From Armatimonadota bacterium (GTDB lineage: Bacteria; Sysuimicrobiota; Sysuimicrobiia; Sysuimicrobiales; Humicultoraceae), in contig JAVKIA010000005.1 in NCBI GenBank assembly GCA_031459715.1, forward strand, positions 1-64,000: 64,000 nucleotides of DNA. Reading direction: 5' to 3'. The notes under the pieces are model-generated. The model had not been told where the DNA came from. It saw only the letters and a program-made list of their open reading frames with translations, and did not search any database. Both the position numbers and the translations under genes were made by a program. Positions 9,895 through 11,521 of this stretch are shown here, one piece after another (the first letter of the stretch is position 1; each line of letters opens with the position of its first letter).

Positions 9895-10314
9895 TCACAG
9901 CCGCCCGGCCGCTCGCAGCGTCCGGTGCGCCGAGCGCATGCAGGCGTTCATGACCACCCGCAGTCCCGCGGCGGCGGCGCGGGCGGCCGCTTCCTCGTTC
10001 ACGATGCCCGACTGCATCCACACCACCCTGGCCCCGATGGCAATGGCGTCCTCCACAACCGGAGGGACCTCCTCGGAGCGACGGAAGATCTGCACCACAT
10101 CCACGGGCTCAGGGACCTCTCGCAGGTTGGGGTAGGCCTTCTCGCCCAGGACCTCCTTCACCCGGGGATTGACGGGGATGATGCGGTAGCCCTGCTGCTG
10201 CAGGTAGGCGGCCACCTGGTAGCTGTCCCGGTGCGGTCTGTCGGACAGGCCCACCACCGCAATGGTCCTGGCCTGCTTCAGGATCTGCTGCACATCCTCC
10301 CAGGTGAGCGCCAT
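9895..10314 (-). CDS. CoA-binding domain protein (YccU family)
   Basis: The 139-residue protein is a single Rossmann CoA-binding domain: TIAVVGLSDRPHRDSYQVAAYL, then IIPVNPRVKEVLGEKAYPNL and VWMQSGIVNEEAA. Members bind CoA but have no settled reaction. ATG 10314 lies 15 bases after the stop of the selenocysteine glutaredoxin gene, so the two are probably cotranscribed. A shared redox or CoA-thiol role is only a guess. It is convergent with sdhA. Confidence 0.85.
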   Translation of the reverse strand: MALTWEDVQQILKQARTIAVVGLSDRPHRDSYQVAAYLQQQGYRIIPVNPRVKEVLGEKAYPNLREVPEPVDVVQIFRRSEEVPPVVEDAIAIGARVVWMQSGIVNEEAAARAAAAGLRVVMNACMRSAHRTLRAAGRL

Positions 10315-10329: not shown

Positions 10330-10563
10330 CTACGTGCCCAGCAGCTCTTGCAGCTTTGCTTTGTTGAAGCCCACCACCGGCACGCCATCGATGACCGTGA
10401 CCGGGGTGGCGGCGAATCCCAGGCGCATGACCTCCTCCAGGGCGTCATCATCCTTTGTGACGTCCCTTTCGGTGAAGGCCACGCCCTGCTGGTGAAGGAA
10501 CTCCTTCACCTTACCGCAGAACAGTCAGCCTGGTTGCGTGTAGACGACCACCGTCCTGGCCAT
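10330..10563 (-). CDS. Predicted selenocysteine-containing glutaredoxin (in-frame UGA, U-x-x-C)
   Basis: Reading through the TGA at 10525-10527 gives a full 77-residue glutaredoxin-like protein: MARTVVVYTQPG, then Sec13, then LFCGKVKEFL. The thioredoxin-fold marks follow: FTERDVTKDD, the cis-proline segment ATPVTVIDG and a VVGFNKAKLQELL end. Glutaredoxins have CxxC exactly where this has UGA-x-x-Cys. The frame continues 64 codons past the UGA with clear family similarity and stops at TAG 10330. ATG 10563 has a GGAGGGAGGAG site upstream. A hairpin placed like a SECIS follows the UGA, and selC and selB are in this window. Likely an electron donor or thiol-disulfide reductase. Alternative: a pseudogene with one Cys-to-stop change. 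Confidence 0.88.
10491..10510 (-). promoter_or_regulatory. Candidate bacterial SECIS hairpin
   Basis: On the minus strand GGTGAAGG pairs perfectly with CCTTCACC around loop AGTT, and an A-T pair could close it further. The stem starts 14 bases after the UGA and the loop 22 bases after it, within the spacing known for bacterial SECIS elements. A G is among the first two loop bases, which SelB recognition usually needs. The hairpin lies inside the coding sequence (Lys-Val-Lys-Glu-Phe-Leu-His), as in other bacterial selenoproteins. Confidence 0.75.
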
Positions 10564-10596
10564 GGACGCTCTCCTCCCTCCGGGCTCGCTTCGCCC

Positions 10597-10602
10597 ATCA
10601 TA
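10597..10602 (-). promoter_or_regulatory. Possible -10 box of the glutaredoxin gene
   Basis: TATGAT is found on the minus strand 33 bases upstream of the ATG. No clear -35 hexamer accompanies it. If it is active, the gene has its own promoter in addition to read-through from the riboswitch leader. Confidence 0.3.
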
Positions 10603-10661
10603 GCGTACGGGCCAGCAAGAATGTTCCACGCCTCCGGCCGCACGCGGGTGGGGGCGCGGGA

Positions 10662-10919
10662 TCAGCCGGCCGGGGTTGAGGCCGGGGTGGTGGGGAAGGA
10701 GGTGCGGTCGGGCGCGGGTAGGTGCTGGGCGACGGCCGCTGCGGACTGCGCGTGGGTCGGTGGCGACTGCTGGAAGGGGAGGGGCGAGTCGATTGGGGAG
10801 AGCTGTGTCGGAGAGCAGCCGTCGCCCAACAGGATCCACCGGAGGAGGGCGGCCAGGGCGAAGATCCCGGCCAGGAGGACTCCGGCCCAGAACTCCCAGG
10901 TGACGAGCGCGTCCACCAC
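10662..10919 (-). CDS. Small single-helix membrane protein of unknown function
   Basis: This is an 85-codon gene starting at GTG 10919 with GGAGG five bases upstream, directly behind the GEMM riboswitch and its terminator. The N-terminal third holds one transmembrane segment (FWAGVLLAGIFALAALLRWILL); the rest is a Pro/Ser/Gln-rich tail without motifs. I do not recognise a family. Control by cyclic-di-GMP suggests a surface, motility or envelope role. The selenocysteine glutaredoxin gene starts about 100 bases downstream and may be in the same transcript. Confidence 0.6.
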   Translation of the reverse strand: MVDALVTWEFWAGVLLAGIFALAALLRWILLGDGCSPTQLSPIDSPLPFQQSPPTHAQSAAAVAQHLPAPDRTSFPTTPASTPAG

Positions 10920-10943
10920 GTGCGCCTCCGCGCTCCCGCGTGC

Positions 10944-10975
10944 CAAAAGAAACGCCTTCCGCGGTGGGAAGGCGT
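10944..10975 (-). terminator. Intrinsic terminator of the GEMM riboswitch
   Basis: ACGCCTTCC and GGAAGGCGT form a nine-pair perfect stem around a six-base loop, followed by TTCTTTT on the minus strand. It lies between the aptamer and the small membrane-protein gene, the usual place for a transcriptional expression platform. Confidence 0.88.
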
Positions 10976-10987
10976 CCAGGCCCTCCC

Positions 10988-11066
10988 GTTCGGCAACCCG
11001 GCTGACTGGCGGTGCCAGTCCCGTGGCTTTGCGGACCGCCCTCGCGGGCGGGGTGCCTTTATCGCG
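10988..11066 (-). promoter_or_regulatory. Cyclic-di-GMP-I (GEMM) riboswitch
   Basis: The minus strand reads AAAGGCACCCC, a CCGCCC/GGGCGG stem capped by GNRA loop GCGA, then TCCGCAAAGCCACGGGAC, a GACTGGC/GCCAGTC stem, and AGCCGGGTTGCCG. This matches the GEMM-I layout: GGCA pairs with TGCC, the tetraloop is GNRA, and CGCAAAGCC and GCCGGGTTGCC are the conserved core. The bases equivalent to Vc2 G20, A47 and C92, which contact the ligand, are G, A and C here. This points to cyclic-di-GMP rather than cGAMP. It is followed by a strong terminator. Confidence 0.85.
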
Positions 11067-11147
11067 GGATGTTCCCTATGCTCTTCACCCACATTCTGCC
11101 CGATTCCCCCTTTGGCTAGACCCGCGCCCGGGGGTTCCCGGCGCGGC

Positions 11148-11200
11148 TTGACGCTGCCCGCCTCGCTGGATTAGGATGGGCCGAGCCCCCCCGGGGGGGG
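11148..11200 (+). promoter_or_regulatory. csoR-copA promoter with GC-palindrome operator
   Basis: TTGACG (11148-11153) and TAGGAT (11172-11177) are spaced by 18 bases. Just after them is a C7G7 palindrome at 11186-11199, followed by AGGGATACC. CsoR operators are pseudo-palindromes of G and C tracts, so this is a likely copper-responsive operator lying between the promoter and the csoR start. Confidence 0.6.
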
Positions 11201-11209
11201 AGGGATACC

Positions 11210-11521
11210 ATGCGGGATGCCCCGGAGATGCGCATCATGCACGGCAGTCCAGAGGAGCGGCGGAAGGTGCTGACGCGCCTGCGCAGCATCGCCGGCCACC
11301 TGGAAGGCGTGGAACGAATGGTCAGCGACGGTGCATACTGCATCGACATCGTGCGGCAAACCCTGGCCATCCAGCGGGCGCTGGACCGCGTCAATGCCAT
11401 GCTGCTGGGGGACCACCTGGAGCAGTGCGTCACCCGGGCGATGCAGTCGGGGGACGAGCGGGAGCGGCGCCGGGTGATCCGGGAGATCCTGGACGTCTTC
11501 GAGACGTCCAGCAAGCTGTAG
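11210..11521 (+). CDS. csoR: Copper-sensing transcriptional repressor CsoR
   Basis: The 103-residue all-helical repressor has the copper-binding triad Cys44, His69 and Cys73 (in YCIDIVRQ and GDHLEQCV). In this family Cu(I) binding releases DNA. ERRKVLTRLRSIAGHLEGV is the conserved first helix. ATG 11210 follows a GGGGAGGG site. It precedes copA by nine bases and likely represses csoR-copA-copZ. Confidence 0.93.
   Translation: MRDAPEMRIMHGSPEERRKVLTRLRSIAGHLEGVERMVSDGAYCIDIVRQTLAIQRALDRVNAMLLGDHLEQCVTRAMQSGDERERRRVIREILDVFETSSKL

What the first reader, a model, noticed from the sequence alone, without database searches (positions are those of the whole stretch)
10330..11066. Cyclic-di-GMP riboswitch upstream of an unknown membrane protein and the selenoprotein
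The GEMM aptamer with intact ligand-contact positions and a strong terminator precedes an 85-residue single-helix protein, then the Sec glutaredoxin and a CoA-binding protein on the same strand. This would link redox protein expression to cyclic-di-GMP, a combination I do not know of. A possible extra -10 at 10597-10602 could separate them.
Basis: partly seen in the sequence, partly recalled or inferred. Interest (0 to 1): 0.7.

Follow-up and report, generated by a model that had tools for sequence, protein, structure and literature searches.

The report
Cyclic-di-GMP riboswitch before small membrane peptide
A genuine cyclic-di-GMP riboswitch sits in front of a short, previously unnamed single-helix membrane peptide in a poorly known bacterium, but the neighbouring selenium-containing glutaredoxin most likely belongs to a separate transcription unit, so the proposed link between the signal and redox control is not supported.

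Summary
The aptamer is real: RF01051 at 11067-10989 (-), 59.5 bits against a gathering score of 35, with G20, A47 and C92 intact. A strong terminator follows (10977-10945), and the leader also folds into an exclusive antiterminator that uses the 3' strand of P1, which predicts an OFF switch. Its conserved target is the small ORF at 10919-10662. Aptamer plus this ORF recur in three other Sysuimicrobiota genomes, one of them from another family, where only a 39-aa transmembrane peptide remains. The glutaredoxin is a UGA-containing, Uxx-star-like selenoprotein paired with a CoA-binding gene. That pair recurs at 11 loci in the order; only two, both in the window's genus, lie behind the riboswitch. 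In G004 the riboswitch-peptide unit exists without the glutaredoxin. Side findings: the aptamer belongs to a P2-internal-loop variant (C24 C25/U42 C43) also found in Actinobacteria and Gemmatimonadetes, and a conserved 16-17 bp stem lies inside the ORF, whose tail lacks a coding signature. Nothing was tested at the bench.

The parts
10989..11067 (-). c-di-GMP-I (GEMM-I) riboswitch aptamer; G20=11057, C24/C25=11053/11052, U42/C43=11035/11034, A47=11030, C92=10993
   Evidence: RF01051 59.5 bits, gathering 35; RF03167 56.0 bits, below its gathering score of 59
10966..10987 (-). predicted antiterminator GGGAGGGC(10987-10980)/GCCUUCCC(10973-10966), sharing the P1 3' strand CGGG (10988-10985)
   Evidence: unconstrained fold -60.0 against -59.8 kcal/mol with P1 forced plus terminator
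10945..10977 (-). intrinsic terminator hairpin (11 bp) plus CUUUU tail
   Evidence: fold with P1 forced; similar hairpins in related loci
10662..10919 (-). small ORF (85 codons, GTG); residues 1-35 a conserved single-helix peptide TWEFWAGV...LLRW..LG; the C-terminal tail is P/S/T/A-rich and poorly supported as protein
10723..10831 (-). conserved 16-17 bp long-range stem inside the ORF's 3' part, C-rich loop
   Evidence: RNAalifold; z -4.58, -3.16, -3.49 in three genomes
10650..10727 (-). C-rich, G-poor stretch (60% C, 18% G), possible Rho-loading site
   Evidence: C/G 3.36 against the 99.9th percentile of 3.0 for 78-nt stretches of the window
10597..10627 (-). promoter-like motif of the glutaredoxin: GGAACA-N17-GCTATGAT
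   Evidence: a matching motif in G001 and five loci of other genera
10330..10563 (-). glutaredoxin-like selenoprotein, UGA at codon 13 (U-x-x-C)
   Evidence: PF00462; NF041212 Uxx_star and TIGR02196 YruB below cut-off; in-frame TGA in nearly all close homologues
9895..10314 (-). CoA_binding_2 protein, partner of the glutaredoxin
   Evidence: PF13380 157 bits; downstream of the glutaredoxin at 11 loci

Best explanation
This is a class-I c-di-GMP riboswitch that controls transcription of a small single-helix membrane peptide gene. At low c-di-GMP the nascent leader forms the antiterminator, which ties up the 3' strand of P1 and the 5' arm of the terminator, and the gene is read. When c-di-GMP binds, P1 closes, the terminator forms and the gene is off. 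The selenoprotein glutaredoxin and CoA-binding gene downstream are a separate pair, widespread in the order, with their own promoter, that has come to lie behind this unit in one genus. Shown by computation: aptamer, terminator, antiterminator fold, recurrence of the aptamer-peptide unit, recurrence of the glutaredoxin pair without it. Inferred: the OFF direction, ligand identity, use of a separate promoter. The peptide's function is unknown; an envelope role is the most likely guess, because other riboswitches of this subtype precede pilin-like or secreted-protein genes.
For: RF01051 59.5 bits. Aptamer plus peptide ORF in G000, G001, G004 and G013. In the G013 homologue, by reading the two DNA sequences, 7 of 11 identical residues use a different synonymous codon (sequences), which argues for a real peptide. 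Two near-isoenergetic exclusive folds (-60.0 and -59.8), and antiterminator folds in the paused state of several related leaders. Glutaredoxin-CoA pair at 11 loci, only two behind the riboswitch. Motif upstream of 7 of 13 glutaredoxin genes against 0.06 expected (pattern chosen after looking). Five GGDEF domains in the genome, so c-di-GMP is plausible. Sibling aptamers of this subtype precede N_methyl prepilins and a DUF1996 protein.
Against: In the genus pair the ORF lacks a coding pattern of substitution (20/6/15 by codon position; dN/dS about 0.67). The promoter motif was picked after looking at the sequences, and a weight matrix built without the genus scores it only at p 0.03 and 0.06. 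No intrinsic terminator was listed between ORF and glutaredoxin. OFF/ON calls from folding alone can be wrong, and in some siblings the fold does not clearly show the antiterminator (L124).
Confidence: 0.68

Rival explanations
1. The riboswitch controls a whole operon: peptide, glutaredoxin selenoprotein and CoA-binding protein, linking c-di-GMP to redox control.
For: Same strand, order kept in both genomes of the genus; no intrinsic terminator listed between ORF and glutaredoxin.
Against: The glutaredoxin-CoA pair is riboswitch-free at 9 of 11 loci, and the riboswitch-peptide unit has no glutaredoxin beside it in G004 and G013. Promoter-like motif and an extreme C-rich stretch in between.
Confidence: 0.15
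2. The riboswitch controls a structured RNA (or a peptide gene whose 3' half works as RNA) rather than an 85-residue protein: the conserved 16-17 bp stem acts as an RNA element.
For: Low synonymous divergence (dS 0.24, 0.09 in the first 35 codons, against 0.71 for the glutaredoxin); no third-position excess in codons 36-85 in the genus pair; stem z -4.58, -3.16, -3.49.
Against: A peptide homologue with synonymous codon changes behind the same kind of aptamer in another family; good Shine-Dalgarno; only three sequences hold the stem and none of its pairs has a double compensatory change.
Confidence: 0.15

Closest known systems
c-di-GMP-I riboswitch, GEMM-I, Rfam RF01051
   Same: Fold, G20/A47/C92, GNRA loop in P2, terminator platform
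   Different: P2 internal loop A24 A25/G42 A43 replaced by C24 C25/U42 C43
c-di-GMP-I-GGC, Rfam RF03167
   Same: Scores close (56.0 bits) and preferred for several Actinobacteria and Gemmatimonadetes members of the subtype
   Different: Below its gathering score of 59 here; the printed consensus has G where the window has A47, and a canonical P2 loop
Uxx-star / YruB glutaredoxin-like selenoproteins (NF041212, TIGR02196)
   Same: Short glutaredoxin fold with UxxC
   Different: Below the curated cut-offs (56.7 against 66; 75.0 against 88.55); next to a CoA_binding_2 gene

Membership tests
RF01051 c-di-GMP-I riboswitch | covariance-model score over the curated gathering score | tested here: met
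   59.5 bits against 35
RF01051 c-di-GMP-I riboswitch | ligand contacts G20, A47 and C92 | tested here: met
   read off using the numbering in PMC3764141
RF01051 c-di-GMP-I riboswitch | C44-G83 interhelical pair | tested here: inconclusive
   C44 is present (11033); G83 was not mapped position by position
RF01051 c-di-GMP-I riboswitch | highly conserved P2 positions A25 and G42 | tested here: not met
   C25 and U42 in the window. These are conserved, not defining: many aptamers with the same change pass Rfam's score, so membership stands with a variant loop
RF01051 c-di-GMP-I riboswitch | binding of c-di-GMP | not testable with these tools
   needs in-line probing or calorimetry
RF03167 c-di-GMP-I-GGC | score over gathering | tested here: not met
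   56.0 against 59
Uxx-star glutaredoxin selenoprotein | in-frame UGA as Sec in UxxC, conserved in homologues | tested here: met
   one TGA in nearly all of the close homologues; tRNA-Sec in the window
Uxx-star glutaredoxin selenoprotein | NF041212 score over cut-off | tested here: not met
   56.7 against 66; the broader PF00462 Glutaredoxin is met

The most novel reading that the evidence does not exclude
A c-di-GMP riboswitch of an undescribed P2-loop variant controls a dual-function transcript: a conserved 35-residue single-helix peptide fused to a conserved structured RNA, divergent from the copper operon csoR-copA.
Probability: 0.15. Interest if true: 0.55.

Novelty: new member of a known kind. 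Interest (0 to 1): 0.3.

Why it matters
c-di-GMP riboswitches are numerous in this order, and I found no study of them. This one points to a small membrane peptide as a c-di-GMP target, and to an aptamer variant whose ligand preference is unknown. For the scan, it shows that same-strand adjacency in one genus should not be read as co-regulation.

Tried and rejected
Operon with the selenoprotein: rejected as the leading view by gene-order comparison. GGC variant aptamer: below gathering, A47 present. Family assignment of the peptide: no Pfam or NCBIfam match and no meaningful solved-structure match. More peptide homologues by profile: only the known four are clear. More copies of the ORF's DNA: only G001 and G004 are clear. 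Literature for a c-di-GMP riboswitch with a selenoprotein, a glutaredoxin or a small membrane protein: nothing relevant among the titles and abstracts returned; the papers were not read in full and subscription journals are mostly not held.

Full report
Observation. Rfam RF01051 matches window 11067-10989 on the minus strand with 59.5 bits (gathering 35). The window's genome has four such aptamers, and 43 of 61 genomes in the relatives search have one over the cut-off, all in the window's own order as far as the table shows, apart from one weak match. A same-genus genome, G001, appears to be CSP1-3, which NCBI places in Candidatus Sysuimicrobiota; the identification rests on matching contig numbers and lengths. 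With the numbering of PMC3764141, G20, A47 and C92 are intact.

Aptamer variant. In the P2 internal loop the usual A24 A25/G42 A43 is C24 C25/U42 C43. Among the order's aptamers that could be tabulated this is a minority type; a pattern search of the fetched loci, plus G001's own copy, gives nine distinct examples. A pattern scan of genome contigs found 31 stretches, among them Solirubrobacterales, Nitriliruptoraceae, Frankiales and Gemmatimonadetes. Of 18 records rescanned, 15 have a c-di-GMP-I or c-di-GMP-I-GGC match at or over gathering. At least three of the 31 look like chance matches (L154, L157, L167). I found no Rfam family for this variant, but I cannot say that it is undescribed.

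Expression platform. Downstream lies an 11-bp terminator (10977-10950) with a CUUUU tail. The free fold of the leader is an antiterminator at -60.0 kcal/mol; with P1 forced the terminator forms at -59.8. With the RNA stopped before the terminator's 3' arm, the free fold, which holds the antiterminator, beats the P1-forced fold by about 6 kcal/mol. Several siblings fold alike in that state (L059, L060, L107); L124 does not clearly. The inference is an OFF switch. This is folding, not measurement.

Target. The ORF 10919-10662 has homologues behind an aptamer in G001, G004 and G013. The G013 protein has 39 residues, keeps TGEFWGGV...LLVRW, and uses different synonymous codons at 7 of 11 shared residues (counted by eye). 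So the N-terminal helix is very likely a real peptide. In the genus pair, however, the ORF has 20/6/15 substitutions by codon position, dN 0.16 and dS 0.24, whereas the glutaredoxin has dS 0.71 and a normal third-position excess. A 16-17 bp stem (10831-10815 with 10739-10723) is conserved in three genomes with z-scores -4.58, -3.16 and -3.49, without double compensatory changes. An RNA-level constraint is likely; its role is open. The unit is divergent from csoR-copA in G000, G001 and G004.

Selenoprotein. The glutaredoxin carries an in-frame UGA that is kept in nearly all of the close homologues, and the window holds tRNA-Sec. tblastn places the CoA-binding gene directly downstream at 11 loci; among these only L034 (the window) and L035 (same genus) also have the peptide ORF, and only these have the riboswitch within the DNA examined. 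The flanks examined were about 1.5 kb or less. G004 has its glutaredoxin on another contig from its riboswitch-peptide unit. Upstream of the glutaredoxin, a motif written as GRAAHA-N15-19-TAY was found at 7 of 13 loci against 0.06 expected in first-order Markov sequences. I chose that pattern after looking at the sequences, so the contrast is inflated; a matrix built from other genera only gives p 0.03 and 0.06 for the genus. The stretch 10727-10650 is 60% C and 18% G, beyond the 99.9th percentile of the window, which would suit Rho loading; that is inference.

Verdict. The riboswitch and its peptide are real as sequence features. The claimed link to redox proteins is not supported, though read-through in this genus is not excluded. 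New member of a known kind, modest interest.

Noticed in passing
window 11057-11030 and loci L107, L114, L123, L124, L126, L141-L170: Class-I c-di-GMP aptamers with a changed P2 internal loop (C24 C25/U42 C43) across several phyla; ligand preference unknown.
   Followed up: partly
window 10831-10723 (-): Conserved 16-17 bp stem inside the small ORF, with low synonymous divergence and no coding pattern in the tail.
   Followed up: partly
window 11185-11210: GC-rich near-palindrome (cccccccggggggggagggatacc) before csoR, with similar ones in L059 and L060; a possible CsoR operator.
   Followed up: no
window 10627-10597 (-) and loci L035-L053: Recurring GRAAHA-N15-19-TAY motif upstream of glutaredoxin genes, resembling an ECF-type promoter.
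   Followed up: partly
window 7365-7254 (-): TPP riboswitch (63.9 bits, gathering 54.3).
   Followed up: no
L002 (G000:C8): Another aptamer of this genome precedes a sigma-70-type sigma factor gene.
   Followed up: no
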